A stretch of 64,000 nucleotides of DNA. Origin: a virus. The stretch spans positions 1 to 64,000 of IMG/VR virus record IMGVR_UViG_3300043409_002109, one strand, 5' to 3'. Of this stretch, positions 1 to 47,600 are shown piece after piece; within the stretch, counting starts at the first letter, position 1; the number at the start of each line of letters is the position of its first letter. Position numbers and translations under genes: made by a program. The notes below the pieces were generated by a model that saw nothing but the letters and a program-made list of their open reading frames with translations, did no database searches and was not told the origin of the DNA.

Positions 1-17
1 TACCAACATAGGCCATA

Positions 18-50
18 AAAAGAAAAAGGGTGATGTCCCCTCTTTCTTTT
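18..50 (-). terminator. Hairpin terminator after the first minus-strand gene
   Basis: Read on the minus strand, positions 50-38 (purine-rich) pair with 30-18 (pyrimidine-rich): 13 pairs including one G.U around a 7-base loop. The pyrimidine arm also supplies the T-rich tail. The hairpin begins 43 bases past the stop codon of the minus-strand gene ending at 93. On the plus strand the same fold has an A-C mismatch (26/42), which favours use on the minus strand. Confidence 0.6.
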
Positions 51-92
51 ACATCTCACTCAAGAGTCATGGCTAGTAAGAGCCAGTGCTGA

Positions 93-494
93 TCAGACCA
101 GCAGTACGGGCCGCGCCCGCATCAGCCGCAGCCCACGGCCCCCGCCGTAGCCGATGGGGGTGGTCAGGACGGGACGAGCCCGTTCCTTGGCGGCCAGGAG
201 CCGAAGCTCCATAGGGCCGGGGCGGGAGGAGGAGCGCAGGGGACGCTCCTCCCAGGCGAACGGGGTGAGGCGGGTGTCCACCTCCTCCTCCTCCTCCTCA
301 TCCAGCTCCGAGGGGAGCGTGGTGCGCCCCTCCAGGAAGTCACGGCAGAAGGCCTTGGCCTCCCGCTTGACCCCCCGATCCTCGGCCACCTGGCCCAGGA
401 CCCCGTGGAGCCCCCACAGGAGGCCGATCAGCCCCCCGAGGTAGGCCCAGAGGGTGACACCGATCATCTGCGCGGCCATTTCATATGCAATCAC
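93..494 (-). CDS. Small membrane protein, unknown function
   Basis: A 133-residue protein of no family I recognise. A hydrophobic segment at about residues 7-34 should span the membrane. It is followed by a charged stretch, a run of six glutamates near residue 66, and a basic C-terminal tail, so one membrane helix with a soluble C-terminal part is the likely topology. I chose the GTG start at 494 because GGAG lies six bases upstream; a TTG at 506 would place that GGAG inside the gene, and an in-frame ATG lies at 479. Base composition is very GC-rich (45 of 60 bases at 121-180), quite unlike the plus-strand structural genes. A hairpin terminator follows at 18-50. A plus-strand serine-rich ORF over the same bases is a shadow. 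Confidence 0.6.
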   Translation of the reverse strand: MIAYEMAAQMIGVTLWAYLGGLIGLLWGLHGVLGQVAEDRGVKREAKAFCRDFLEGRTTLPSELDEEEEEEVDTRLTPFAWEERPLRSSSRPGPMELRLLAAKERARPVLTTPIGYGGGRGLRLMRARPVLLV

Positions 495-1387
495 GGTGAT
501 CTCCAATTGCTCTTATGAGCGGTGAAGAGGACGTATCCTCTGGTTTCCCTTTTAGCCTGAGGGTACAGTTGGTACGGACGTACCGGGGATGTGGGCCTCT
601 CACCCACTCGACGCCACACTGAGGTAGTGGTATTGCCCTGTCTCTCTATGAGAGCCCTTTGGATGAGATACGCTCATCCTCGGATGCCCCCGTAGCATCG
701 AATGTCCGGGTAGACCCTGATAGGCTATCGCTTCTCTAGGGGATTGTTGCCGTTTTTGGCTGACCAGCCTCAAGTGCTTCGGCGCACTACACCCATAGGG
801 AACTTCCATCCCCATGTATCCCAGGTGTACTAGTATCCCCGATCAAGGGGCCTATGATACACCCATATGGTTATTCTCCATGCGTATACCCACGTCTCAC
901 GACGTTAGGTGCGCACAGACTACTTAGTGTCAGTACATAGTGTATAGGAGAGGAACCGCTGTCCTCCTCCATCACCCATCCTGACCTAAGTGTACGGTAA
1001 CTGCCTGTACCGTACTTCCCCACCATGGTAGGGGTTAGGAGCCTTACTATCACCCAGGCTACTGGGTAGTGGTTTCCGCCAAACCACCAAAGCGCTAATA
1101 CCTCGACCGACTATGCACACTACTATACAGTTCTAGGGCCTAGGCCACAGCTAACCTACTCCTTCCCTGTGTTGGGGCTAGGTACGTATTGCTGTACTGT
1201 ACGCATTGTGCATCTCTTGTCGAGATACGGGTGTGTTGCGCCTTAGCACAACAGTGACCCTGCGTATGACTTATACACACTGTATTCGATGCAGTATCCT
1301 TAGGTTGGTTAGACCATAGGACTTACATTATACTCATATGTATATGTGCTCAACCAGGTTATTTGTTACGCAGGACATGAAGCGATG
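495..1387. other. Gene-poor, hairpin-rich stretch
   Basis: About 0.9 kb without a convincing gene on either strand. Two minus-strand ORFs of 60-71 codons exist (600-815 and 871-1053), but neither has a Shine-Dalgarno site nor a protein-like composition. Several short perfect inverted repeats are visible: 571-584 (6 bp), 661-679 (7-bp stem, 5-base loop), 992-1015 (8-bp stem) and 1069-1087 (7-bp stem, 5-base loop), plus a GGCCTAGGCC palindrome near 1138. The stretch is rich in GTAC, TATG and GTATAC words. It may carry structured RNA or regulatory DNA; no tRNA or known RNA family was recognised. Confidence 0.4.
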
Positions 1388-1504
1388 TCATACGCACTTG
1401 AGGTCATCCATTACAGAGGACCATAAAAAAGAAAGAACAAGAAGAAGAAAAAAGAGAAAGGGCAGAGGGGCCAAAGCCTCCTTCGTGATGTTTTCGTACA
1501 CCAT
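1388..1504 (-). CDS. Possible 38-residue membrane peptide
   Basis: A short minus-strand ORF with a strong Shine-Dalgarno site (GGAGG, four bases before the ATG at 1504). The peptide has a polar N-terminus, then one strongly hydrophobic stretch of Phe and Leu at about residues 14-28, then a short polar tail, as in single-helix membrane peptides. The hydrophobic stretch is encoded by a pyrimidine-rich tract (plus strand 1424-1460) of the same kind as the tails of the nearby minus-strand terminators, so the ORF could be a coincidence. The ribosome site is the best argument for it. Confidence 0.35.
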   Translation of the reverse strand: MVYENITKEALAPLPFLFFLLLVLSFLWSSVMDDLKCV

Positions 1505-1560
1505 AGTACCTCCATGAGTACGTACTACCCGGTTAGATGGGCGTATGTGTACTCAGTACC

Positions 1561-1618
1561 ATAGAAAGAAAAAAGAAAAGGCTGAAGAAAGAAAGGCCCG
1601 GGGATTTCTCCCCGGGCC
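1561..1618 (-). terminator. GNRA-loop hairpin terminator
   Basis: On the minus strand a perfect 10-bp GC-rich stem (1618-1609 with 1604-1595) closes a GAAA tetraloop and is followed by a T/C-rich tail down to about 1561. The stem starts 12 bases after the stop codon of the minus-strand gene ending at 1631. This is a classic intrinsic terminator, though the tail is interrupted by C residues and a CAGCC. Confidence 0.75.
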
Positions 1619-1630
1619 ACAGCTCGTAGT

Positions 1631-1801
1631 CTAGAACTTCAACCTCCCCCATACGAGGGCCGTGCCCAGAATGGCGCAGGGGAAGGCCCCCGCGATCCAC
1701 GAGAACTGGTGGAGGGGATCCTCCACCAGGAAGCCCTGGAACTCCGGGTGGAGCACGAGGGCGAGGGCCGCAAGCACATGGGCGAGGACGATCTTGGACA
1801 T
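1631..1801 (-). CDS. Small two-helix membrane protein
   Basis: A 56-residue protein beginning MSKIVLAHVLAALALV, unknown family. Two hydrophobic segments (about residues 4-17 and 33-50) separated by a polar loop with acidic residues suggest a small double-spanning or hairpin membrane protein, a size and shape seen in phage holins and other inner-membrane effectors; this functional idea is only inference. The ATG at 1801 is preceded by GGAGA at a good distance, and a strong hairpin terminator follows the stop codon. The gene is GC-rich like the one at 93-494. Confidence 0.6.
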   Translation of the reverse strand: MSKIVLAHVLAALALVLHPEFQGFLVEDPLHQFSWIAGAFPCAILGTALVWGRLKF

Positions 1802-1891
1802 GCAGTCTCCAGAGGCAATGCATATCGTACTAGGCTACATACCTACACTATAGCGACATGCTACAGCACAGGTACATAGTGCTAGTATGCA

Positions 1892-2077
1892 CTACCATAG
1901 AAAAGAAAAGGTATATACCCTATGGTATGGATATGTACATGGTATGCCTATGTATGCGTGCATACCCATGTATTAGGTACCACACACACACACACACGTA
2001 TACGTATGAGGTATACATATACCTATGTACATACCTATGTGTAGTAGGTACATACATGGTGTGTGTGCATGGTGATG
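1892..2077. repeat. Low-complexity CA / TATG-rich stretch
   Basis: A stretch made largely of alternating pyrimidine-purine words (GTATAC, TACGTA, CATATG, ACATACCTATG) with a clean CA dinucleotide run at 1981-1997 and TG-rich words near 2058-2070. An ORF of 74 codons on the plus strand (1858-2082) is the translation of these repeats (His-Thr alternation) and is not a credible gene. The stretch separates two minus-strand genes; alternating sequence of this kind melts or forms cruciforms easily. Confidence 0.55.
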
Positions 2078-2079
2078 CG

Positions 2080-2121
2080 TAAAAGAAAGGGGCCTACACC
2101 TATGGTTAGTAGATGTAGGCC
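2080..2121 (-). terminator. Hairpin terminator after the 55-residue gene
   Basis: On the minus strand an 8-bp stem (2121-2114 with 2098-2091) with a 15-base loop is followed by CC and then a T-rich tail (2088-2080). It starts nine bases after the stop codon of the gene ending at 2131, so it is well placed to end that transcript. Confidence 0.6.
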
Positions 2122-2130
2122 ACGTATTCC

Positions 2131-2298
2131 TCACTGCACGATGTAGTGCATCTCACAGGGCTCAGCCCAATTGTAGGATTGAGCCCAGATGAACACGATG
2201 ATCATGCCCTGTGCTTCCTGCACCTCGATGCAAAGCTGAGCCTCATCGAGGACGAGGCTCACAATCTTCTTCGCCAAGTCAAGCTTAGTGATAGACAT
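2131..2298 (-). CDS. Short hypothetical protein
   Basis: A 55-residue acidic protein of unknown function, beginning MSITKLDLAKKIVS. An amphipathic N-terminal helix rich in Leu, Val, Asp and Glu is followed by a hydrophobic stretch (GMIIVFIWA, about residues 31-39) and an aromatic tail. I chose the ATG at 2298 rather than the longer upstream start at 2349, because the extra residues are basic and unlike the rest; only a weak GGA precedes the ATG. A hairpin terminator follows. It resembles other very small minus-strand genes of this arm in size only. Confidence 0.5.
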   Translation of the reverse strand: MSITKLDLAKKIVSLVLDEAQLCIEVQEAQGMIIVFIWAQSYNWAEPCEMHYIVQ

Positions 2299-2463
2299 AT
2301 CGTTTCCAGGGGTAACACATTGAATCCTCTTACATCGCGATTGATGCATGTAGGATGTGCTCCATAAAAAAGAAAAAGAAAGGTAGGTACGAGCAGGAAT
2401 ATATCCCGGTGGGCTCGGATCTCGAAGGGTAGCGCAAACTACTATCTATATACCTGGTCCAAC
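2299..2463. other. Start of the divergent intergenic region
   Basis: No gene seen. Positions 2362-2384 hold another CCATA-A-rich tract (T/C-rich on the minus strand), the same motif as near 13, 1421, 1559 and 1892. Around 2437-2460 there is a diverged partial copy of the direct repeat described at 2464-2580. Confidence 0.4.
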
Positions 2464-2580
2464 CCTACTATATCTATTTTATAGCTTATTTAGTTCCAAA
2501 AAAATATTACAAAACCAAGGACCTAATTCCTATATTGGCATCCTACTATATCTATTTACCTCCTCATTAGTTCCAAAAAA
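2464..2580. repeat. Two-copy direct repeat, promoter-like
   Basis: A composite element occurs twice: a 16-base block, CCTACTATATCTATTT (2464-2479 and 2542-2557), then 9-10 variable bases, then a 14-base block, TTAGTTCCAAAAAA (2490-2503 and 2567-2580). The copies start 78 bases apart. The blocks are identical but the spacer is not, as expected of a protein-binding or promoter element. It sits in the AT-rich gap between the minus-strand arm and the long plus-strand late region. Confidence 0.6.
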
Positions 2581-2641
2581 CTTTATGGATTTCACTCTCT
2601 CCTTCCCCCCTCTTTTTCTTTAAAAAATTACAGAAAAAATT

Positions 2642-4497: not shown

Positions 4498-5286
4498 ATG
4501 AGTAAGTCGCTTCTCAGTAAAAAGGAACTTCAGTCTCTAGAGGAGCGACAGACTCTGGCTTTGCAAGAAATCTCTGAGATCGATCCCGATTACCAGAAAT
4601 ACCTCGAAAAGCTGCCGGCGCGAAGACGGGAGAGGATACATCGACAGGTGGCAAAGACCAGAAATGGTCTTTACACCATCGCCCCCACTACCTGCGTCGG
4701 GCCGTCTAAGTGCCTCTTCATCGAGCAATGCCCGATACCTGATAGAGGGCCCGGCGGCGAAATAGTACTAGGGGATCTTAAAGATTACCCTATGTATCGT
4801 CCGTGCGTATTTGAGATGCTTTATATGCAGCAGAAAGTTATAGACTATATGCAGCATCTTGGAGTAGACCCAGAGAATCCTATAGAGATGGCTCTAGTAA
4901 ATGACTTGGCTGTTATCGACCTATATAAAAATCGCGCGATGCTGATTATGGCTGGCGGAGATAAAGAGGGCGATGGGCGAGATTTTATGAAGAGAGACAT
5001 GATGGAACAGCAGGGTGAACATGGTACTCTTACGAGTACCCAGACTCAGTTACATCCAGCTGCTACCTATCTGGATACTCTGGAGAAGAGGCGTAGCAGA
5101 CTGCTAGAAGGGCTCCAGGAGACCCGTAAAGGCAAGATGGACGTGGCTATCAAGCTAGGGCAGGGGGGTAAGGACAGCGCTCTCCGTGAGGAGCTAATAC
5201 TCATTAAGAAGGCACTAGAGGCCGCCGTCTCGATTCCCCAAGCGGGGGCGAAAGATGAACAGCTATTGCTTATTGATGATGATTAG
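4498..5286 (+). CDS. Cys-rich, putative small terminase subunit-like protein
   Basis: A 262-residue protein in two parts. The N-terminal half carries four spaced cysteines (TCVGPSKC, IEQCPI and, some 28 residues later, RPCVFE) that could bind zinc or an iron-sulphur cluster. The C-terminal half (from about residue 125) has a helical pattern, LVNDLAVIDLYKNRAMLIM, then LHPAATYLDTLEKRRSRLLEG, reminiscent of P27-type small terminase subunits (helix, hPa-like motif, basic helix). Small terminase subunits recognise phage DNA and recruit the large subunit, whose gene lies 5.4 kb downstream. The resemblance is by eye; the separation from the large subunit gene is unusual. Start chosen at ATG 4498, one base after the previous stop. 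Confidence 0.4.
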   Translation: MSKSLLSKKELQSLEERQTLALQEISEIDPDYQKYLEKLPARRRERIHRQVAKTRNGLYTIAPTTCVGPSKCLFIEQCPIPDRGPGGEIVLGDLKDYPMYRPCVFEMLYMQQKVIDYMQHLGVDPENPIEMALVNDLAVIDLYKNRAMLIMAGGDKEGDGRDFMKRDMMEQQGEHGTLTSTQTQLHPAATYLDTLEKRRSRLLEGLQETRKGKMDVAIKLGQGGKDSALREELILIKKALEAAVSIPQAGAKDEQLLLIDDD

Positions 5287-5423: not shown

Positions 5424-5436
5424 ATGTGGAGAGTAA

Positions 5437-8400
5437 ATGGCTAGTGCCTATTCCCTATTGAAGCACGCGCTTATCCTAGATACAGAGACCCTAGGATTAA
5501 AGCGTGGTGTGCCTATTCATGAGATAGCCATATATTCTTTTGACAAGCAAGAAGCTTACGAATACTTGTTGAAGCCTCGCATGGTCGAGGTCGCGGGTAG
5601 TACCGCTCAGGATTTCACCCGGCTAGCGAGCAGCGTGAATGATGAACACTTTGCTAGAGGTTTTCCGAACTGGAGAGAGGCTATCAAGCAGGTAGCGGCT
5701 ATGCATACTGGCCAAGATGTCTCCAAGATGCAAACGGAAGAGGCTGTTAGAGCCGCGCTCAGACAAACGAATGAGTTCCTGTATAACAATTTATTCGGAG
5801 AGAACGCTCAATACGCTCACCTCTGGACGGGAGAAGTCAATCCCGCCCAGCAGGCTTTGAGGTTCCAGGCTCTTGAAAAACTTGGAATTAAGGCGACCTC
5901 AAAGGCCCAGCAGAATATTGAGGATTTATTGAAGCCCGGGGGGCTGCTCAAGGCCAATGTGGGCACTCAGGGCACTACTTTATGGATCGCTAATGCGGGG
6001 TTCGAAGGCAAGCAGCTCGGCGCACAGCTTGGCGCAATGGGGCCTGAAGCAGTCAGAGCCTTCAAATCCCAACTTGAAACAAGCGCTGCTACAGCTGATC
6101 CCCTATACGTTACTGGTGTGGAAGTTAACCAAGCTAGAGCTAAAGCTCAAATGACGGGCGACTGGACTGATGTTTGGAAGGCCTATAATAAATATGGTCC
6201 TAAAAGCGGAGAGATCGCGGTACGAGACATCCAGGACGTAACCCGTGCCATGGTTTCTTACGGTCAGAAGCTTGGCATCATCAAGCCTGGAGATCAGAAC
6301 TATGGGCATACGATTGATCTCCAGTACCGGCTCTTGGGCTCAACAGAGAAAGACCCTAAGCTCGCTTTAGAGATGTTGGGAACCAAGGAGGCCCACAGAG
6401 CCCTAGAGGATGCTAGCATTTCTGAGAAATACGTTCTTGAGCGTGGTGCGTACTTTACTCAGGCGCTACAAGAAGCTCACGAGGGAACCCCCTTGGGCTT
6501 ACAGTACTTAGAGCAAGCGAAGAAGCAGCAAGGGCCTATATTTGAGTTCGGACAATACGCGGTGCGGCGAGATGCAGTAGATCCTACGACAGAGCGTATT
6601 GCTGCGATTCAGCGGCTAGAGAGAGCCGCCATTGATTTCGAAGACGGGGGGATGAGCTGGCAGCATACCGGGTATAAGGGTATTCACCAAATGCCTCAGC
6701 AGACCCCCTCTGGAGAGGAAGTCTTTATTGCTCGGCCGAGACAAGCCAGAACTGGCTATGGTTCTATGGAAGAAGTCATTAGTAGCCTGAAGGCTGAGGG
6801 CTCTTACTCTTCCGTGGATATAGACAAAGAATGGGCTGACATGAGTGCTGCTATCAAAGCTAGGCCGAATGACCCTAGGTTAGCAATGACCGAGCATGTG
6901 TCTGCTGCCAGGGCAACCGCCGATCAATTCTTCCAGACTAATGCCAAGGCCTTGCTCGAAATGTCTCCTGAGAACACCCTGAGAAAGGTTAACAGTGTTT
7001 TCGGGGAGCGTGGGGCGAAAGTTGCAGCAGATGATCTAGTCAAGATTGCACCGAAATTCACCAAAATGATGGGCATAGCAGCCGTTGGCCTTGCCGGAGT
7101 TGGGGCTCTCTGGAGTACAAGCACCCATAGCTCCAGCTCAGACAGAAGAGGTAACTCTCTGCTCACTATGAACTATGATGAGTGGAGCATGAGCAACCCC
7201 CCTGGGCTGGCTAAGCAAGGTATCAGTCATCAGGAGCGTTCGTCCAACACAGACTTCGGCTCCCCATATCAGGGCCCGGCTACTTCTCAGAGTGTATTGA
7301 TGGACCAAGAGCTTCTCCAGGCGAGAGAGAAGTGGATGAGACAGCAGTACAGAATCTCCTCTTTCGATTCTGAAGTTGGGTTGTTCGGCGAATTTGGGGT
7401 AATGAAATATCTAAGAAGAAGCTCTTATACTTCGAACCCTTACGGGAGAGATATAAGAGACGGGGAAATGCCTGGGCTCAAAAACCGAAGGGGAATGAAG
7501 GTAATTGATGCGAACCCTACAGATTGGAAAATCTCCGTAGAGGACGCCGATACCGTGACTCTCCAGAGGAGGGGCGTTCGCTCTGCGGTTGCGAGATTCT
7601 TCGGACTAAACAGCCAAGATTATACGTTCCGACTAGAAGGAATCGACTCCACTGAAACCGCACACGGAAGCGATTCTTATCATGCTCCTCAGCCCTTCGC
7701 TGAGCAGGCTAAGATTGCATTAGAAAATATGTACAAGGGTAAGCGCCTTCAAATAGCTTACGATCCATCAAATATGACCTACGGTCGTAACGTCGGTGTC
7801 GTTTACTCTGAGGGAAAGAACTTGAACTTAGAAGAAGTGAAGAGGGGTATAGCCTCTCACCTTCCCTATGGTAAAAGAGCAGATGCCCACGCGAACTGGG
7901 ATGCATTCAGCTATGCACAGGAAAAGGCAGTAGCTTCTCAGAGAGGCATGTGGGCTACCCCTTGGGCCCAGGTCTACAATTCCTTTACAGAGTCTGCTGG
8001 AACGCAGATCACATTCGATACATTTGCTAAACCGTCGAAGATGGCTGGAAACTATACGACGATGGAACTGCTGACTGCGATGGAGCACTCTCAGGCTTTA
8101 GGGAGCGCCTCTGAAAGTTCGCTGGCTTTAGCTGCTTCGCTTGGGAAGAAATGGGATATGAGGGGAGATAACGTAAGACCTTCGATCACCTTTTCGCGTT
8201 CGCAGGCTCATCACAGTGGATACATGACCCACTTACTTGCTGACACCAACAGGTTCATGACAACCCAGGGCACAAACGAAAACCCTTACAGGACCTCGCA
8301 TACTCGCGGGGTCGGGGACCTTAACGGGTATCTGGCGCTAGACACTACCGGGTCGAATACCAGCCCGTGGGCTAGAAGAACGCTCAACGCATATGATAGA

Positions 8401-8508
8401 TACGGAACTAAAGAGGATTCTTCTCAGCGCAAGGCTAAGATGGCTATGATGCAAAGACAAGTTAATCAGCAATTCGGAGTGTCCCCAATCGGACACCATA
8501 GGATGTAA
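5437..8508 (+). CDS. DEDDh exonuclease - SNase fusion protein
   Basis: A 1023-residue protein with two nuclease domains. The N-terminal part looks like a DnaQ-type 3'-5' exonuclease: LILDTETLGL gives Asp15 and Glu17 (Exo I), NAGFEG around Asn186-Glu190 fits Exo II with Glu in place of Asp, and HRALED gives His320 and Asp325 (Exo III, DEDDh type). A hydrophobic stretch lies at about 544-561. From about 700 to 830 the sequence follows staphylococcal nuclease: FRLEGIDSTE (Arg732, Asp737), PFAEQAK (Glu756) and TYGRNVG (Arg784) match the three catalytic residues and the YGR motif. The last 190 residues are polar and unrecognised. The gene has GGAGAG upstream and sits at the head of the packaging and structural cluster; a role in processing host or phage DNA in the virion or during packaging is inference. 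Confidence 0.75.
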   Translation: MASAYSLLKHALILDTETLGLKRGVPIHEIAIYSFDKQEAYEYLLKPRMVEVAGSTAQDFTRLASSVNDEHFARGFPNWREAIKQVAAMHTGQDVSKMQTEEAVRAALRQTNEFLYNNLFGENAQYAHLWTGEVNPAQQALRFQALEKLGIKATSKAQQNIEDLLKPGGLLKANVGTQGTTLWIANAGFEGKQLGAQLGAMGPEAVRAFKSQLETSAATADPLYVTGVEVNQARAKAQMTGDWTDVWKAYNKYGPKSGEIAVRDIQDVTRAMVSYGQKLGIIKPGDQNYGHTIDLQYRLLGSTEKDPKLALEMLGTKEAHRALEDASISEKYVLERGAYFTQALQEAHEGTPLGLQYLEQAKKQQGPIFEFGQYAVRRDAVDPTTERIAAIQRLERAAIDFEDGGMSWQHTGYKGIHQMPQQTPSGEEVFIARPRQARTGYGSMEEVISSLKAEGSYSSVDIDKEWADMSAAIKARPNDPRLAMTEHVSAARATADQFFQTNAKALLEMSPENTLRKVNSVFGERGAKVAADDLVKIAPKFTKMMGIAAVGLAGVGALWSTSTHSSSSDRRGNSLLTMNYDEWSMSNPPGLAKQGISHQERSSNTDFGSPYQGPATSQSVLMDQELLQAREKWMRQQYRISSFDSEVGLFGEFGVMKYLRRSSYTSNPYGRDIRDGEMPGLKNRRGMKVIDANPTDWKISVEDADTVTLQRRGVRSAVARFFGLNSQDYTFRLEGIDSTETAHGSDSYHAPQPFAEQAKIALENMYKGKRLQIAYDPSNMTYGRNVGVVYSEGKNLNLEEVKRGIASHLPYGKRADAHANWDAFSYAQEKAVASQRGMWATPWAQVYNSFTESAGTQITFDTFAKPSKMAGNYTTMELLTAMEHSQALGSASESSLALAASLGKKWDMRGDNVRPSITFSRSQAHHSGYMTHLLADTNRFMTTQGTNENPYRTSHTRGVGDLNGYLALDTTGSNTSPWARRTLNAYDRYGTKEDSSQRKAKMAMMQRQVNQQFGVSPIGHHRM

Positions 8509-8510
8509 TT

Positions 8511-9479
8511 ATGTTAGACAGCCTTTTACAATACATACACCAAGGTGCACATCACTCAACTGGAGCTTATCCAATTGGGAACACCCTAGATGGACATACT
8601 GTCTATGAGCATTTCGGGTTGCGTTACGACATGAAGGGACGGACAGGGAATACCTGGGGTAAAGCTGGCATGGGAGGGCTAACTGGTGCCTTGATGGGAG
8701 GTGTTGGGGCTGCAGTCATGGGCGGCAGCTGGGGAGATATAGGCACTGCAAGCGCAACTGCAGGTTTCGTCGGCGCCACGATGGGTGGGATAGAAAAACT
8801 AAGACAGGGAGGCAAAATCGGAGGCAACGCCTCCTGGATGGGCGCTTTAGGCGCTGTTCCTGTTGTGGGCATGAGTGGTTATTTTATTTATCAGGGCTAC
8901 AAAGAGAACGGTTTGACTGGAGCCCGAGATGCAGCAGTTTGGGATATCGCAACTAACGCTGCGGTTCGCAAATTCGGCTACAAGCAACTTGCTCATGGTG
9001 AGTTGGCTATTGGCGCTACGAAGAATGCGATAGTTTCGAAAGGGCTCCTTTCTCATGGCGTTAGATTCCTAGGGGCGGGTATTGGAGCCCAGATTGGTCA
9101 ATCTATAGGTGATAGCATCGGCCTTCCAGGCGCAAGTATAGCCGGGGCATTTGCTGGAGCTTTCGTTGGGGCCGCACCTGTGAAGTTCATGGCGAGCCAC
9201 CCCTTCATAGCAGCGGGTGCGATGGCAGTCGGCGGCCTTGCCGCTACTGGATATGGTGCTTATGAGGTATTAAAGATGGGATACGCCCAGAAGCAATCTC
9301 GAAAAGGGATTCAGACAGCTGGAGATTTAGCTGCATTTAATACCATGGGAGCGAATACAATGAGGTCACGAGCTGTACAGGCTATTCAGAAGAGCCATAC
9401 TAATGCGCGCCAAGCGCTCGGTATGGAAGCAAATTTCTTAGCATATCCTTCTCGAAGCTATCATTCTCCATATCGCTAG
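8511..9479 (+). CDS. Gly/Ala-rich membrane-interacting protein
   Basis: A 322-residue protein full of glycine-zipper-like stretches (GGLTGALMGGVGAAVMGG, GAGIGAQIGQSIGDSIG, AGAFAGAFVGAAPVKF) with several possible membrane segments between residues about 55 and 245, and a polar Ser/Tyr/Arg tail. Such proteins in phages are often tape-measure-like, internal virion or ejection proteins that insert into the host membrane, but no family was recognised. It starts two bases after the nuclease fusion gene, without a good Shine-Dalgarno site, so it is probably translated by coupling with that gene. Confidence 0.55.
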   Translation: MLDSLLQYIHQGAHHSTGAYPIGNTLDGHTVYEHFGLRYDMKGRTGNTWGKAGMGGLTGALMGGVGAAVMGGSWGDIGTASATAGFVGATMGGIEKLRQGGKIGGNASWMGALGAVPVVGMSGYFIYQGYKENGLTGARDAAVWDIATNAAVRKFGYKQLAHGELAIGATKNAIVSKGLLSHGVRFLGAGIGAQIGQSIGDSIGLPGASIAGAFAGAFVGAAPVKFMASHPFIAAGAMAVGGLAATGYGAYEVLKMGYAQKQSRKGIQTAGDLAAFNTMGANTMRSRAVQAIQKSHTNARQALGMEANFLAYPSRSYHSPYR

Positions 9480-9512: not shown

Positions 9513-10259
9513 ATGACCAAGAATAAAAAAGTAGAACTTGTGCTTGGGCAAAAGTTTGGGGAGTGGACTGTGGTCTCACAAAGGGAGAGGTCACACTGGC
9601 TATGCCTATGCTCCTGTGGCCGGGAGCAAGAAGTCTACGTGTCCACTCTGACTCAGGGTAGATCGACTCGTTGCGGGCAGTGTCGGTTTGCTCGGCCTTT
9701 TCTGAAGGACCGTACTGGAGAACGGATTGGATCCCTAATCGTACTCAGTTATCATAGTGAGCATTTGAGTCGCCGAGGTTCCCTGGCTCATCATTGGCTC
9801 TGTAAATGTGATTGTGGTGAACATGCTATTGTCCGTGTAGATAACCTAAATGCTAAGGGTCGCGCTATGAAAACTTGTGGTTGCGGTAGGGCTGGTGAAA
9901 ACAGCTATGGCTGGAAAGGTGCGGGTCAATTAACCGGTGAGAAGTGGGGGCAGATACTAAGAGCCGCTAAGAGCCGTAATATTCCGGTTCTAATGTCTAA
10001 AGAAGACGCTTGGGATCTTTTTCAGAAGCAGAAAGGTATTTGCGCTCTGACAGGATGGCCGCTGACTCTTTATTCAAAGAGTCGTTCGGCATCAAGGGAT
10101 GCAGACGCTTCCCTTGATCGAATCGATTCTTCTCTCGGCTATATAGAGGGCAATGTCCAATGGGTTCACAAATGGGCGAATCAAGCCAAGAATGATTTGA
10201 CTATGGAAGAATTTGTTAACATGTGCCGCGCTATCGCCGGAGTAGCGGATGGATTTTAG
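9513..10259 (+). CDS. HNH homing endonuclease with zinc ribbons
   Basis: A 248-residue protein. Two Cys-rich zinc-ribbon-like repeats come first (Cys31, 33, 35, 54, 57, and Cys97, 99, 101, 122, 124), each followed by a beta-rich segment. The C-terminal part is an HNH / His-Me finger nuclease: CALTG at 177-181, then SLDRIDSSLGY (200-210) and GNVQWVHKWANQAKND. This is typical of free-standing phage homing endonucleases that spread by cutting alleles lacking them. It has its own AGGAG site, lies near the terminase gene, a favourite target, and its last 11 bases overlap the next gene. Not expected to be needed for virion assembly. Confidence 0.85.
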   Translation: MTKNKKVELVLGQKFGEWTVVSQRERSHWLCLCSCGREQEVYVSTLTQGRSTRCGQCRFARPFLKDRTGERIGSLIVLSYHSEHLSRRGSLAHHWLCKCDCGEHAIVRVDNLNAKGRAMKTCGCGRAGENSYGWKGAGQLTGEKWGQILRAAKSRNIPVLMSKEDAWDLFQKQKGICALTGWPLTLYSKSRSASRDADASLDRIDSSLGYIEGNVQWVHKWANQAKNDLTMEEFVNMCRAIAGVADGF

Positions 10260-10647
10260 TAAGCGACTGTCATGTTTGAATAAAGTTCTCTCCCTGAGAG
10301 AGAGTGGGCAAAGCGTTGTTGTCTGTGGCACTGGCTTCTTCTATGCAGTCTTTAGGGAATACCTTTTACAGGAAGTCTTAGAGCGACTAGATACCTCAAT
10401 AGAGGAAATTCAGTGGGAGGATGCTACTCAGATAAGCTTTGCCAATGGCGCTAGTCTTATTCTCTTCGATGTGGAGAAAGAGAATGAGCTGGAAGCTTTT
10501 GTTAAGCTGAGTGATAACTGTGATATGGACCTTATGCTCCTATTCGAACCACAATTGGGATTTCTCAAAGAACAATATAATACGAGGCTTCTTCCTATCA
10601 TACTGGAAAAACCAAAATGTAGAATTCAGATAGTGAGAGGCGGCTAA
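10249..10647 (+). CDS. Small protein resembling a degenerate terminase ATPase domain
   Basis: A 132-residue protein ending on the first base of the terminase start. By eye its order of elements copies the terminase ATPase that follows: SVVVCGTGFFYAV where Walker A would be, ISFANGASLILF like MEFSNGAKISGF of the large subunit, MDLMLLFEP where the Walker B LDE would be, and RLLPII like VVLPIM. The Walker A lysine and the Walker B acidic pair are missing, so it would not hydrolyse ATP. It might be a regulatory or structural partner of the terminase, or simply an unrelated alpha/beta protein. The homology is my inference; the ORF itself is well supported by overlaps at both ends. Confidence 0.5.
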   Translation: MDFSKRLSCLNKVLSLRESGQSVVVCGTGFFYAVFREYLLQEVLERLDTSIEEIQWEDATQISFANGASLILFDVEKENELEAFVKLSDNCDMDLMLLFEPQLGFLKEQYNTRLLPIILEKPKCRIQIVRGG

Positions 10648-12908
10648 TGGCAGAGAAGATTGACTTAAAGAGCATTGAGAAGAAGCTCTATACTACGAAT
10701 GAATATAGTGTTAGGTATCAGGACTCTGATGCAAGACTCTCAGAGGAGGAGGTCGCCTATCTTGGTAAGGTTCATAATGTCAGAACAGATGTACACAGAA
10801 CCTGTATCAACTGTCAGGCGCGGCAGGTTATCAAGTATGAGAGGGCTGTAGACAAGGAAGGTAAATCTCAGAAAGATTTCCGAGTGCCTTGCAGCTATAT
10901 TGCCAGAGCATTACCTCCAGGATCTGCGGGGATCATTGATAACCTGATGGCGGATAAAGGTATAAGCCGAGAGCGTGCCACACTTGTTTTACGCGCGACT
11001 CAAGACCCTGTAGCATGGGCTGAGCTTATGTTTGGGTTTGACGATGCGACCAAGGGCACTCAATCAGAATGGTATCTTCGAAATTACCAGAAGGAGCAAT
11101 TGAGGTGTTCTTCAAGGCGCATTGTTATTCGTGAAGGCCGTCGTAGTGGCAAGAGCTTTATCATAGCTTTAAAGCTTATTTATCTGGCCTTTACTCAGAG
11201 GATACTTAGAGGTGCGAGCGATGGAACAGAGCGGTCTACGGGGCCTCAGATACTTATCATCACTCCATATCAGGCTCAGGTTACGAACATCTTTGAGGAG
11301 ATAGAGAGCTTATTAACGCGCTCTCCAGATTTAGCCAAGGAGATAACTTCTGGAACCAACGGCAACCTTTATGTGAAGACACCATTCCTCCGGATGGAGT
11401 TTTCTAATGGTGCAAAGATCAGCGGATTCGTTTCAGGTGTTGGAACCAAGACTGACGGCAGCGCTGGTGGTACTCTGCGAGGTCAGTCGGCTGACATCAT
11501 CTATCTTGATGAAATGGATATGATTCCAGATGAAGTCTTGCAGAAGGTAGTCCTTCCGATCATGGCCACCCGTAGCGGCACCTCAATGATTGCTACTAGT
11601 ACTCCTATAGGTAAAAGAAGTACATTTTACAAATGGTGTTTATCGGATGCGACTTTCAAAGAGGACCACTTACCATCCACTGTTCTTCCTCAATGGAATG
11701 AAATCAAAGACCTCCTTATAGGAGACTCAACTGCTGAATCTTTCGCTGCCGAGTATATGGCCACCTTTATAGAAGGTGGCTTCGGCGTATTCAAGCCCAC
11801 ATTGGTGTGGGAGGCCCGTCAAGACTACTCTTATGACAATACTATTAACCAGGCATATCTTAAAACGAAACTTGGAGTTCAACGCCCCGAATATATGCTC
11901 AAGTGTATAGGTATCGACTGGAACAAAAACGCAGGCTCTGAGTTCTATGTTGTGGGATTCGATATAGATAAGGGCCAATGGATCGGCTTGGAGGCTACTA
12001 ATGTGAGCGCTTCGGAGTTCTCTTCTATTCGATGGAAAGAAGAAGTCATCCGCCTAAACTATAAATGGAAGCCAGACTTTATCTATGCTGACGAGGGATA
12101 TGGGCACACCATCATAGAGGATCTTAAGCTTATGGCCCATAAGGTGAGAGCCGCGCCTAAGCCTACACTACAGCATGTAGAAACCGCTAAATTGGTAGAT
12201 AGACTGGTTTCCTTCAACTTCTCTTCGAAGGTGGAACTGAGATCACCTATAGATGGAACTATTATTACTAAGAGCGGTAAAGATTTCTTGGTTGAGAATG
12301 CTATTCGAGCTTTTGAAGACCAGAAGATATGTTTCCCCGTAGGGGATGAGCAGTTACGCAAGGAGCTGATGAACTACGTGGTCTTACGGCGCACACCCAC
12401 TACCAACAGGCCTATCTATGGGGCAGAGAATGCAAATATAGGGGATCACAGACTCGATGCATTTATGCTAGCTGTAGGTGGGTTGTACTTAGAGCACTCA
12501 GAATATAGTGCTTCTAATATGGCGGCGGGGAAGCCCGGAATGCTCTCTAAAGAAGTTCTTGAAGCCAGAATCCCAGTCACTGAAGCTGGCGGGGTCGAGA
12601 CCATTCATGGGCTGAAGAGGGCGACTAAGGTTGGAAATGCCGCTATGATTATTGAGAGAGAATATGGTGGGGGGGATGGGAGTCCTGGCCTAGGCCCTTC
12701 AAGGCAGAATAGAGTCACTAGGAGAGGGGCAGGCGGGCCAGATACTTCCGTCTTTGATCATTACAAAGAGCTGAAAAGCAATAAGGGCATATCTACTGAT
12801 GAGCAGTACTTGAATGAACCGCTGAGTAAGCCTATGATAGGTGAAAGAAGAAGCCGTCCCTCGGCAAGGTCGTCAGGGGACTCTAGACGCAATTGGGTAA
12901 GGAGATAA
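10647..12908 (+). CDS. terL: Terminase large subunit
   Basis: A 753-residue DNA-packaging motor: ATPase that drives DNA through the portal, plus nuclease that cuts the concatemer. Seen: an N-terminal extension with a Cys-pair motif (CINC and a later Cys, about residues 52-81), Walker A GRRSGKS at 164-170, IIYLDE at 284-289 (Walker B and catalytic Glu289), a coupling motif ATSTPIG at 316-322, and RNase H-like nuclease acids Asp424 (GIDW), Asp482 (ADEG) and Asp600/604 (GDHRLDA). The C-terminal 100 residues are basic and low-complexity. The family is longer than the usual 450-600 residues because of these extensions. It follows the degenerate ATPase-like gene by a one-base overlap. Confidence 0.95.
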   Translation: MAEKIDLKSIEKKLYTTNEYSVRYQDSDARLSEEEVAYLGKVHNVRTDVHRTCINCQARQVIKYERAVDKEGKSQKDFRVPCSYIARALPPGSAGIIDNLMADKGISRERATLVLRATQDPVAWAELMFGFDDATKGTQSEWYLRNYQKEQLRCSSRRIVIREGRRSGKSFIIALKLIYLAFTQRILRGASDGTERSTGPQILIITPYQAQVTNIFEEIESLLTRSPDLAKEITSGTNGNLYVKTPFLRMEFSNGAKISGFVSGVGTKTDGSAGGTLRGQSADIIYLDEMDMIPDEVLQKVVLPIMATRSGTSMIATSTPIGKRSTFYKWCLSDATFKEDHLPSTVLPQWNEIKDLLIGDSTAESFAAEYMATFIEGGFGVFKPTLVWEARQDYSYDNTINQAYLKTKLGVQRPEYMLKCIGIDWNKNAGSEFYVVGFDIDKGQWIGLEATNVSASEFSSIRWKEEVIRLNYKWKPDFIYADEGYGHTIIEDLKLMAHKVRAAPKPTLQHVETAKLVDRLVSFNFSSKVELRSPIDGTIITKSGKDFLVENAIRAFEDQKICFPVGDEQLRKELMNYVVLRRTPTTNRPIYGAENANIGDHRLDAFMLAVGGLYLEHSEYSASNMAAGKPGMLSKEVLEARIPVTEAGGVETIHGLKRATKVGNAAMIIEREYGGGDGSPGLGPSRQNRVTRRGAGGPDTSVFDHYKELKSNKGISTDEQYLNEPLSKPMIGERRSRPSARSSGDSRRNWVRR

Positions 12909-41689: not shown

Positions 41690-44600
41690 TTGATTTCTGA
41701 TCTTGCGAGCCCCCTTACCGCACCTGACATTGATCTCGTTCAAAGAAAAGAGATCTTTGTTATAAATGATATTGCCTTAGTGGTTCCTCCCACTTCTATC
41801 TCTGTGCAGAAGGAGGATATGACTTACACCTGGCGCACGCTGCGTACCAGAACAAGTACGAAGGTTCCTACCGGGCATGGTAATATAAATGTCGGGCTTT
41901 CTTTGGTCTTCTTAGAAGATCGTATGTTCGACCTTCATCGTTTAATCGTCCAGTTACGCTCAAGCCCTTTCTGTTATGTTGAGAATCGTTATCTACGGGA
42001 AACTATTATCCCTGAGTTTAACCTCTATCAGGCTATGGCCTTCTGTGTAGATGCTATCCAGATATCTCCTTTACCGGGAACCTCTGATGCTTGGTTGTGT
42101 CAGCTCTCTTTGAGTTGGTTCAACTATCTCCCCTATACTGCTAACTTTATGTTCAGAGAAGATTGGGAAACAGAGTGGCTTGATAGCGGGGGCACTGGCG
42201 GAGGCCAGGCTATTAAGCAGAGCATAGGCTGGAAGTGGAATAAAGAAACTGGTAAGCGAGAGTTCACTCCATCAACTACCTCTCGACGCGAAGCTGAAGG
42301 AACGAATGTAAAGGAGTGGAACCTTCAGCAAGAGGGGTATGCGGATAAGGCCAATCGCACTCTGTTCGACATGGAAGCCTTGCACCTGGGGCAAGAGTTT
42401 GACATGCTTCCCTTGCCGGGAAATATGGCTCCCTCTCAGATAGCTTTAGACCCTCGTAATAGCAGAATCTATGTGCGCTATATTAACTTACTCCAGAGGG
42501 ATGCTCTTTGGGATAATTTTGAGATAGATATTGAGCGCTTGCTGACCGATGCGCAGATACCACTAGAAGGATTCTTCGGAGTTCACGAAGAGCCTGATGG
42601 GAGTAAGCAGACTTGGGGTCTGCATTCGGGACCTACCTCCTCGAATGAGGAGCACCGAAAGGCATGGTATGGAGTGATGAGAAAGGTTACAAGAGACATG
42701 CTTTCTTACAATGGCAAGATCTCTTTAGTCTTTCAGACCTACCAGACACTCGACATGCCTAATGAATGGAGCAAGGCTTTAGGTCGGCTCTCTGCTGTTG
42801 TCAGGAAGGAGTTTAACCCAGGCGCTAGCGAGACGAACCCGCTCTATCAAGGTGATTGGGTCACAATTCATAAGTATAGTAATAATATGACGCAGGCTAT
42901 CAGGAAGCATCCTAAGAGGACGGGACTTACCAATCCTAATGGCTTCAGATCTCCTCTTGGGGCGCCAGATAGAAGATTCAGTATTAATGAACTACGGAAC
43001 GGAGTCTCTTCACGGATATGTGAGAGAAGCCCCGAGAAAGATGTAGAGCTTGGGTACCCCCCCACGGGGAGGAACGAAGGCAGAGTTCACTGGGGAACGG
43101 ACTTCGGGACCGGTAAACAAGAAGGTTGGAAAGTTTACGCCTGTCGGCCTGGGAGAGTCACTGGTGTGAACTACGGATCCGTGGATGCCAGCAAAGTCGT
43201 GTGGAAATCTTTCCGTGAAACGGATGGGAAAATCTCCCAGATAGAGGGCGGCAAACTGTATGAGGCATGGCTAAGGACCATGACTGACGCCCTCGGAGCT
43301 TCTTCTGTAGCGAAGAGCAAGAAGGTCGTGTCCCTTGCCGGTACTGCTCTCCAGCAGTACCAGAAGTTCGGGACTATAATCCAAGATGTGACTTATCCAG
43401 AGATCTACTATTTCACAGACTTAACGAGTGAAGGTGGAAACTGGATTCGAATAGAGCATAACACTGGAGGCGAGCCAGGTGTCGGGAGTTGTGATGGCGA
43501 CATCTCGGTGTATATGCATCTTCGAGAAATATTCGTAAAGGTCGGAGATATCATAGGTGGCGCGGAGGGGAACCCAGGACATGATATCGATCAACCAATT
43601 GGCATTGTAGGGCAAACTTCTACCCTTAGTCCGAAGTATATAGATTGGTTCGTAAAGAATAAGACTCGTGGCGCCCAAAGGGGTGGGCCGGCCGCCGGCC
43701 GCCACGCAGACTGGGAGAAGGGAAAGTTCCAGCAGCTAAAACCTTTTGAGTATCAAGAGATTGTCTCTGAGTTGCGGCAGTCTGGGATTCCAGATCGTAA
43801 GAATAAAGGCGGATTCACACTCCCTATCCACCTCCACTTTGAGTACTGGGAGAAGGAAGGCAACGGTGCTCCGCTTGATCGATCTGTAGATCCTTATGTG
43901 TTCAAGGATTTCTCGAACACTCCAATGGTCAAGGAAGGCTATGTAATGGTTGACCCAGTTCCTTCCTTCGAGGCCGGGTCTCAGGGTATGGAGGGTAAGG
44001 AGAACTACGTCCTCTGGATAGACAATACAGCCGCTATTGCGAAGATCTCTGCCGCTATCGTAGCCAAGGAGATAAAGAAGGATAACGGAGAGAGCTATGA
44101 GGTAGATACGGCGAAGCTCGAAGATATGATAGAGAAGATGGAGGAGCTATCTAGTCAAGGATGGTACCATTACGAGGGGGCTATGAAGCTCCCTAACGTC
44201 TGGTATAAAACTTGGATTCTCAACTACCGACATGGAAACAAAGACGAGCTTAGAGACCCTAACGTTCTCCAGAACTTTTTTAATAGCACTGATAGTGCCT
44301 ATACAGATCTGAGCACAGTTTTCACTGGGGTAAGTGGCGGGTTTACGAACATTGTTGCGCGCATTCCCATCCTCTCATATGAGTACCCGACTCTTCAGCA
44401 TCTTGGTTCTATAGAGCCTCACTACACTTTTGAGTTTACCCTATTGGATGATCGGTTTGACGAAGAGGGCGGCAAGGGTCTCCACGGTATACCTTCTAGT
44501 GGCCAGCTCTTAGAGGGTATGAGAAGTATACTCCAGAGAAATGCCCGTAAATACAGGGAAGTCAAAGATAGTTGGAGCTTAGCTACAGATACTTTTATGA

Positions 44601-47600
44601 CTAGGTTACTTGGTTCTTTCCGGGTGAGAGATGCCATCTTCAATAACACTACAACAGGTGTTGTCAATCAGGTAACTTTATTGAAGAGAACGATTATAGA
44701 ACGCTCTGACAATGGGACTGTAGAAGGTAGCCCAGGGCTGTCCTATCTATCCTTCGAGATGAGCGAGACGAACCCCTATGATGAAGAAGAATTTGTTAAT
44801 ATCAACCCTGCATTCTTTGACGTAGAGACTGCGAGGAAGGAGGCTCTGCAGGCTCTCTATAAGCTAGATATCGCTGGAGAGTTCAAGGACAGTGTTCTGC
44901 CTATTCTTATCGGGAGTCTGGCGAACAGAAATATTCTAGATCCCAATAACGAGGAGGGGTATGGCCAGTTTAGCGTTGATAGCACTAGTGATTTAGCCTA
45001 TGCCCTAGGAGGGAGCCAGAAAGTTATACTTTATCGGGGTGATGATCCCGAATTTAAAAAGGGTTTAGGCTTTCAGGACAGCTTCGTTATCCAAGATCCA
45101 GGCGGGGTCTACGAGAGGCTGCTGCGTAATGAGTTAGAAGGAGACTTCGATAAAAGTGTTACTATTAGAAATGGCTTGCTTCTCGTAAACGCTAATGAAG
45201 GAGACTACGGGGAGCCAGAGTTTTCGACCCCGTATATCGCTGAAGACTACGGAACTTTTGACGAGGGCGCCGTTTCAAACGAAACGAGGAAGCCTAGAGC
45301 TTCCTTCGATATCTCCCGGATATTAGAGTCTTCATCAGATCTCGCTCAGCTTTCTAAGTTGAACTTGCCTAAAATCGCTGACTATTGGCAGCTTCTAGAT
45401 GCAGTGCTTAAGAGTGCAGAGATATCTCTGGCTGAGGAAAAAACTCTTGTCAGTCCCAGGAGTTCGCTCTCCTACCAGACGGGAGGACTTAGCAAGGAAA
45501 GGGTACAGGCAGAGCTTTATGATCTTCCGGTAACGCCCTCCATGTGGAGACTTTGGCAGTATTACCAGATAGCTGCAGGGGCAAAGTGGATCGTAACCGC
45601 GAACAAAGTTCCTAGTGCTGGCTGGAAAACTGATATTCTCCTAGGTCCCGTTGAAAAAATGTTCTTCGCTTCTGTTACGCAAGAGAATGAATTTGATGCG
45701 ACTGGTGAGGCAGCTTTTACTGTATTGAAGAGTAACGCGGGTTGGCTTACTTGGAGCGAAGTAACGTCGGAGGCTCTTTCTCCTGAATTACTTAAGAAAG
45801 CTACTGATACACATCTTTCTTTTGGTACAGACATCTTAACCTTCGGTGGGATTGGCTTGGATAGCTTGGGCGTTGGTGCGACTCTTATTATCGATCAGGG
45901 TCGTGATGGTTGGGCTCAGGTAACTGGGGCGAAGAAAGCAGAGGATACCAAGTGGATGGGGACCTTTCTCCGAGGCGGCACTTTGGCAGCAGAAGAGAAG
46001 CTCACTGAGATATACCTTCGGCATATGTATCCTAGCAATGCCGTCTGGCTGACTGACCTCGCTAAATATTATGCGAAAGATACTCTTTTCTCTCCTATTG
46101 TTGCATTGATTAATGGGAATGAGGGGCCTCTCGCCTCGGTCCATGCCCAGCTGCAAGAGAACTTGCACAGCTGCGGGTATTGGAGCTTTGGTTTTTCAGA
46201 CAGTGCGATAGGGAAAGCTTTCGGGGCTGGGTACCCCCGCTTTACTGTGCGCAAGGAGGATTTCAAAACAACTGCCGATGGCCTCCTCTACTACGATAAT
46301 ACTTCAGGAGAGAGAACTCCATCAGGAGTTTCGGGCATAAAAGATTATGACTCTAGCTTTATCTGGCCTGTCTCTGAAGATGTTGAAATAAAGAAGCTAA
46401 GAGAATTTAAAAGCGCCCTCGCACGTCTCGCCGATGACATACTCTCTGATCCAAAGATTCTAACTGCTTTAGGTTTACAGAGATATATAAACATATTGGC
46501 GTCTCAAAAGACTATCAAGGGTACAGAGTGTTATCCTGATTTACAACTTCCTGAGCATCCTTATTACGGCGATACGAAGGATGTCTCTCCAGATTTTTAC
46601 TTCTGGAATATGTATGATGACGGACAGGCTTTTGCCCCAGAAGTTATCGAACGTATTCGGACTTCAGCCGATCACATTGTATCCAACTGTTATGAGTCAC
46701 TTCGGGTGATGCAGGGCCGGAATGATAAGGCTAATGAAATGCCTTATACAAATACTAGTATCTCTGATCAACAGATTATTACTCCATTCAGATATAATGC
46801 TGAAGCTACTGACGGTAATAGTCCCAACCCATCCAATGTCGGGCCTACTGATATCCCTTGGTATGAAAATGATGCAGCAGCAGATGCTGTAGCGAAGTTC
46901 AATGGAACTATAAAAACTGCTGGGGAGAAAAGCATTAAGGATGCCAATCAGGTTAGCGCGACTCCTCGGAGAGCGTTAAAGGTGAACAAGGCGGAAATTT
47001 CTGCTATCAACCCACCCTCTGCTTCTATGTCGGTTACCGAGGGGCAGATAGATACTGGAGATAGCAAGAACTTTAAGGGTGGCTTGCATTACCCTATGCG
47101 AGTGACCCCCGAGAAGTACACAGAACTGAGGAACCACCTTCTCTCTTCGCGGCCGATGTTTGGTAACAAAGCAGCTTACTTAGGAAAGCAATTCGAAGAG
47201 AATGCCCCTGCTCCAGAGGTAGCTCAAGTTCGGGGAACAGCGCTCCAGACGCCCCTTCAGTACACGCATTTATTCGATGAATCTTCCCTAAAACAGCTTG
47301 CTTTCGACTCTAGTAGAGATATCGTTTCTCAGAAAGTAACTATGAGGAGAGCATTCCCGACCTTCAAGCTCTTCTTTATTGAAGAAGATGAAATCGAAGA
47401 TCATCTTATCGCATATGATGATTTCCATTCTTATAATGCTGTGAAAGAATTCTCAGTAGTCCAAAGCCGCAAGATTGCGGCCGACGTAGCGATCATCACT
47501 CTACAGAACGTTTCGGGTACGCTAGATGCTACCCGCAGAGATGCTATTGCTGACGTTGACTACTTCACGAAGAAGCCTAAGAGCAAAGATAAGAACCAAA

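What the first reader, a model, noticed from the sequence alone, without database searches (positions are those of the whole stretch)
5437..8508. Exonuclease (DEDDh) and staphylococcal nuclease in one phage protein
The sequence shows the DEDDh-like motifs near residues 15-17, 189-190 and 320-325, and the SNase catalytic set (Arg732, Glu756, Arg784) in the same chain, separated by a hydrophobic segment and long polar regions. Both domain families are established nucleases; having both in one 1023-residue protein at the head of a virion gene cluster is unexpected. It might degrade host DNA on entry, act in packaging, or be a defence against competitors (inference). Exo II has Glu instead of Asp, which could weaken the exonuclease.
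Basis: partly seen in the sequence, partly recalled or inferred. Interest (0 to 1): 0.75.

Follow-up and report, generated by a model that had tools for sequence, protein, structure and literature searches.

The report
Two-nuclease phage protein beside terminase gene
A large, unnamed phage makes one long protein carrying two different DNA/RNA-cutting domains, and related phages keep a protein in exactly this gene position while swapping its enzyme parts (nucleases, kinase-like domains), which suggests an exchangeable toolkit that may be carried in the virus particle.

Summary
ORF 5437-8508 (1023 aa) has an N-terminal DEDDh-type exonuclease domain (1-345) and a C-terminal staphylococcal-nuclease domain (about 690-840), joined by a helical region, one hydrophobic segment (541-563) and a disordered linker. 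One detail is wrong: the SNase catalytic Glu is E740, not E756. Exo II is Glu in 35 of 36 aligned relatives and Asp in one, so it is a family signature rather than decay. All other catalytic residues are invariant. About 40 relatives with the same exo-SNase layout lie in the same place, just upstream of the large terminase gene. More distant phages keep a protein in this slot, marked by a motif (consensus GKDDAYNTIEGLRHGGIAGQLRKKNTDFGSGYQGP), but with other enzyme sets: SNase alone, exo plus PD-(D/E)XK, kinase-like, and mixtures. Isolated phages ME3 and KLEB27-3 carry exo-only and enzyme-free versions. The closest known concept is 'polyvalent proteins' (PMC5512222), predicted to be injected with phage DNA. 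Best reading: an accessory dual-nuclease effector, probably virion-borne; localisation and activity are unproven. New variant of a known kind.

The parts
5437..8508 (+). Dual-nuclease slot protein, 1023 aa
   Evidence: relatives at 24-41% identity in about 18 terminase-linked loci
5428..5433 (+). Shine-Dalgarno-like GGAGAG
   Evidence: sequence
5437..6471 (+). DEDDh-type exonuclease domain, residues 1-345
   Evidence: A2 alignment of 36; model pLDDT 93.4; PDB matches led by RNase T, DexA, RB69 gp43 exo
5479..5487 (+). Exo I D15-x-E17, invariant in 36/36
5992..6006 (+). Exo II NAGFE (186-190); Glu190 in place of Asp, Glu in 35/36, Asp in L028
6394..6411 (+). Exo III H320-x4-D325, invariant in 36/36
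6472..7056 (+). Helical and beta-hairpin middle region, residues 346-540, no known family
   Evidence: overlaps the ME3_11 fold match
7057..7125 (+). Hydrophobic segment 541-563, predicted single membrane-spanning segment
   Evidence: hydropathy; present 20-78 aa before the motif in most family members
7204..7278 (+). Motif GLAKQGISHQERSSNTDFGSPYQGP (590-614), one copy of the slot-protein motif
   Evidence: 33.5 bits; specific to slot proteins among 6509 ORFs at E<0.01
7504..7956 (+). SNase domain, residues about 690-840; D705, R732, D737, E740, R784
8482..8505 (+). Conserved C-terminal tail SPIGHHRM
4498..5286 (+). p262, Cys-rich conserved upstream neighbour
8511..9479 (+). p322, hydrophobic Gly-rich neighbour (4 segments) with conserved C-terminus
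10647..12908 (+). Terminase large subunit
   Evidence: Pfam Terminase_6N 1.9e-10, PHROG_2 3.7e-30

Best explanation
The protein is an accessory two-enzyme effector: a 3'-5' exonuclease-like N-terminal half and a Ca2+-type SNase C-terminal half on one chain, joined by a hydrophobic segment, a disordered linker and a lineage-specific motif. It is made late with the head and packaging proteins. The constant parts (hydrophobic segment, motif, C-terminal tail) probably place it in the particle or at the cell membrane, and the enzyme parts act on nucleic acid in the infected cell, probably host DNA or RNA or competing DNA. Shown by computation: domains, conserved catalytic residues, conserved locus, enzyme swapping in the same slot. 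Inferred: late expression, virion packaging, injection and target.
For: Both active-site sets are conserved in deeply diverged relatives. The gene order p262 - slot protein - p322 - TerL is kept throughout the family and its distant relatives. The slot's enzyme content changes while its motif stays: exo+SNase, SNase, exo+PD-(D/E)XK, kinase-like, mixtures; about 21 changes on a terminase tree. The motif lies between 62 of 67 neighbouring enzyme domains. Published polyvalent proteins near portal/terminase genes are predicted to be packaged and injected (PMC5512222).
Against: No virion proteomics for any member was found, and no enzyme assay exists. A packaged non-specific nuclease must be kept from the phage's own DNA. 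The hydrophobic segment fits a membrane-anchored, non-virion protein as well. The Exo II acidic residue is Glu, not the canonical Asp. Both window domains act on nucleic acid, so the 'disparate activities' hallmark of polyvalent proteins is met by the slot family rather than by this protein itself.
Confidence: 0.5

Rival explanations
1. A nuclease that helps DNA packaging or head completion inside the producing cell, in the manner of T4 gp4, by trimming branched or excess DNA at the portal.
For: Linked to TerL and portal in every locus with readable context. T4 gp4, a virion-associated non-specific DNase, is reported as required for packaging (PMC7824862).
Against: Relatives replace the nucleases by kinase-like domains or have none: L163, L180, L202, KLEB27-3 gp006, and MTATph1 shows no such protein. 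ME3 has a separate gene annotated 'head completion protein' next to its slot gene.
Confidence: 0.17
2. A membrane-anchored superinfection-exclusion nuclease: exonuclease in the cytoplasm and SNase in the periplasm, where Ca2+ is available, destroying DNA of incoming phages.
For: A single hydrophobic segment between the two domains, conserved in most family members; lysines before it and few positive charges directly after (sequence); SNase of this type uses Ca2+ (established for S. aureus nuclease).
Against: Position in the head gene cluster; the slot also carries kinase-like domains that would need ATP; C-terminal enzymes lie after the segment in many architectures; no experimental topology.
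Confidence: 0.17
3. A structural or assembly protein whose enzyme domains are inherited passengers without function.
For: Enzyme-free versions exist in the same slot (KLEB27-3 gp006); the motif and tail recur across the wider group while the enzymes change.
Against: Catalytic sets are retained in 36 exonuclease sequences (with Glu at Exo II in 35) and in 67 of 73 SNase-bearing sequences, which drift would not keep.
Confidence: 0.08

Closest known systems
Polyvalent proteins of phages and conjugative elements (Iyer et al. 2017, PMC5512222; prototypes P1 DarB, T4 Alt, MuF fusions)
   Same: Long multidomain proteins with varying enzyme domains, including kinases, encoded with portal/terminase packaging genes and predicted to be injected.
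   Different: SNase, 'staphylococcal' and DEDD do not occur in the paper's main text. Here a single orthologous locus, a shared IEGL...TDFGSG motif and hydrophobic segments unite the family; injection is not shown.
Acinetobacter phage vB_AbaM_ME3 gene ME3_11 (taken to be BFVD entry A0A172PZZ4)
   Same: Same locus upstream of TerL, exo motifs with Exo II Glu (HRFES), hydrophobic segment, short His-containing tail; structural match E 6e-8.
   Different: 529 aa, no SNase domain; sequence-profile comparison alone is not significant.
Staphylococcal nuclease (thermonuclease, PF00565)
   Same: OB fold (TM-score 0.78 to SNase structures), all catalytic residues.
   Different: A domain of a 1023-aa phage protein instead of a secreted single-domain enzyme.
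DEDDh 3'-5' exonucleases (RNase T, DexA, DnaQ, PolC exo)
   Same: Exo I D-x-E, Exo III H-x4-D, a DT-like strand (D264), best PDB fold matches.
   Different: Exo II Asp replaced by Glu; about 130-residue insertion between Exo I and Exo II; weak E-values (best 0.01).
BtI1 baseplate hub protein with SNase domain (Bacillus thuringiensis, PMC2147016)
   Same: SNase domain in a virion-protein gene of a phage lineage related to 0305phi8-36.
   Different: Tail hub, different locus, no exonuclease described.

Membership tests
SNase (PF00565) | Profile match above the curated cut-off | tested here: met
   55.8 bits against 21; all 18 A1 members match
SNase (PF00565) | Catalytic Arg35/Glu43/Arg87 and Ca2+ ligands Asp21/Asp40 | tested here: met
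   R732, E740, R784, D705, D737; no substitution in A1
SNase (PF00565) | OB-fold structure | tested here: met
   Foldseek probability 1.00, TM 0.78 to SNase chains
SNase (PF00565) | Ca2+-dependent nuclease activity | not testable with these tools
   needs assay
DEDDh exonuclease | Exo I D-x-E and Exo III H-x4-D | tested here: met
   invariant in 36 sequences
DEDDh exonuclease | Exo II Asp | tested here: not met
   Glu190; Glu in 35/36 relatives, Asp in L028. It works like one but is not filed as a canonical DEDDh
DEDDh exonuclease | RNase H-like exonuclease fold | tested here: inconclusive
   confident model (pLDDT 93.4); the leading PDB matches are DEDD exonucleases but E >= 0.01 and low TM; distances in the active site could not be measured
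Polyvalent proteins | Several domains of disparate activity in one chain | tested here: inconclusive
   window protein: two nucleases; slot family: nuclease plus kinase-like domains
Polyvalent proteins | Encoded with portal/terminase packaging genes | tested here: met
Polyvalent proteins | Packaged and injected with DNA | not testable with these tools
   no proteomics found for any member
T4 gp4-type packaging DNase | REase (TnsA-like) fold domain | tested here: not met
   no such domain by Pfam in the window protein; ME3 has a separate gene so annotated

The most novel reading that the evidence does not exclude
A whole lineage of large tailed phages keeps one dedicated gene slot beside the terminase for exchangeable effector chains, in which enzyme modules (exonuclease, SNase, lambda-exonuclease-like nuclease, kinase-like) are joined by a repeated motif (hydrophobic segment plus IEGL...TDFGSG) that serves as a capsid-loading, membrane-docking or processing signal.
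Probability: 0.4. Interest if true: 0.8.

Novelty: new variant of a known kind. Interest (0 to 1): 0.62.

Why it matters
If right, the repeated motif would be a signal that marks effector cargo across a large group of uncultured phages, so unknown effectors could be found by motif and locus alone. It would also make a long-standing question, what large phages carry into the cell besides DNA, testable with mass spectrometry on a cultured relative.

Tried and rejected
Single-sequence searches for full-length relatives in viral and genome collections found none; relatives came through the terminase. tblastn of family proteins against phage isolates found nothing or only SNase-size or weak matches. 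Bacterial genomes gave only SNase-region matches, so no host could be named. E756 as catalytic: rejected. Degenerate exonuclease: rejected. Profile comparison with ME3_11 was not significant by sequence; the link rests on structure and locus. Phage BpSp proteomics (PMC4870245) was consulted but did not bear on the slot. No papers on KLEB27-3 or MTATph1 are held. The full-length model gave only SNase among the listed PDB matches, so the exonuclease was modelled apart. The rest of the genome has no second SNase, and its ORFs showed no further motif match.

Full report
What is there. The ORF at 5437-8508 is intact, has a Shine-Dalgarno-like GGAGAG and ends two bases before the ATG of the next gene. 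The window is the first 64 kb of a 150,205-base IMG/VR virus record. The surrounding genes are those of a contractile-tailed phage: terminase, portal, a protease-like protein, major capsid, tail sheath, baseplate.

SNase half. Pfam gives PF00565 at 7e-15, PDB sequences of S. aureus nuclease match residues 726-830, and the model matches SNase structures at TM 0.78. The functional residues by alignment are D705, R732, D737, E740 and R784; none is substituted in the 18 aligned sequences.

Exonuclease half. One sequence alone gives only weak profile hits. Terminase-linked relatives settle the motifs: D15, E17, H320, D325 and also D264 and D267 are invariant in 36 sequences, 22-48% identical to the window protein. 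Exo II reads NAxFE; Glu in 35, and Asp in L028 (ANVAFDAK), which fixes the register. ME3_11 also has Glu. The model of residues 1-345 has pLDDT 93.4. Its leading PDB matches are RNase T, T4 DexA and the RB69 polymerase exonuclease, but with E of 0.01 and above and low TM because of long insertions. I therefore call it DEDDh-like rather than a canonical member.

Between the halves. Residues 346-540 form a mostly confident helical region with a beta hairpin. 541-563 is hydrophobic. 525-668 is predicted disordered and contains the motif 590-614. The chain ends SPIGHHRM, kept with small changes in most relatives.

Relatives and locus. One search gave 20 viral contigs by terminase; 19 of them hold this protein, mostly full length, just upstream. 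One search gave 69 loci; counting all loci, 43 distinct sequences have exonuclease, motif and SNase in that order, some from the same contig or truncated. The order p262 - nuclease - p322 - TerL - further head genes is kept in the loci examined.

A slot with exchangeable enzymes. Divergent relatives showed several copies of a motif. DNA-pattern scans for it returned further contigs. Wherever context could be read, the motif protein lies between p262 and p322/TerL. Its enzyme content varies: SNase, exonuclease with PD-(D/E)XK (profile best match a lambda-type exonuclease, E 0.004), kinase-like domains (Pfam Pkinase down to 1e-10), and mixtures. 62 of 67 neighbouring domain pairs have the motif between them, and 91 of 107 non-exonuclease domains have a motif within 200 residues upstream. 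The motif is specific: among 6509 ORFs none outside the slot proteins and their fragments matches below E 0.01; the profile was built from slot proteins, so this speaks for specificity, not for independent discovery. On a terminase tree, architecture needs about 21 changes, while the window's own clade of 37 is uniformly exo-SNase apart from one truncated contig. Contig ends and my own domain profiles make 21 an upper figure.

Isolates. Acinetobacter phage ME3 has an exonuclease-only version two genes before TerL. Bacillus phage KLEB27-3 has an enzyme-free 257-aa version ending ...IGHHKMGNSKFQ. Moorella phage MTATph1 keeps p262 and the p322 C-terminus but shows no such protein. The enzymes are therefore accessory.

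Interpretation. Accessory, variable enzymes on a constant carrier next to the packaging genes fit an effector delivered with the genome, as proposed for polyvalent proteins (PMC5512222), better than a packaging enzyme. A membrane-anchored exclusion nuclease cannot be ruled out. Nothing here shows virion localisation, injection or activity.

Noticed in passing
L159:4078-5373 (phage ME3, ME3_9): Annotated as RNA (guanine-N1-)-methyltransferase, but its N- and C-terminal parts match p262, and an intein-like stretch (CLTGDTLI...HNFIANNFIVHN) sits inside the Cys cluster.
   Followed up: partly
window 4498-5286: p262: four invariant Cys (C66, C72, C78, C103), probable metal- or cluster-binding protein of unknown function, next to the slot in the loci read; no match in the PDB.
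   Followed up: partly
window 8511-9479: p322: Gly-rich protein with four hydrophobic segments and a strongly conserved C-terminus (TMRxRAVxA...NARSALGxEA), also in MTATph1 and KLEB27-3 directly before TerL; possible membrane or ejection protein.
   Followed up: partly
window 9513-10259: HNH-endonuclease-like gene between p322 and TerL, absent in most relatives; looks like a homing insertion.
   Followed up: no
L019:7433-10921, L180:5657-8713, L177:7333-10668: Unusually long terminase ORFs (over 1000 aa), perhaps inteins.
   Followed up: no
window 1-2600: Few plausible genes, GC falling from 0.64 to 0.34, and simple repeats such as (CA)n; odd for a phage, possible non-coding end or assembly problem.
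   Followed up: no
MG366115 1255-1864 (Acinetobacter phage PBAB25): A 40-kb phage record holds three pieces like the jumbo phage ME3 slot gene (72% mean identity); possible recombination or mixed assembly.
   Followed up: no
window 41690-50734: 3014-aa ORF in the tail/baseplate region, not examined.
   Followed up: no
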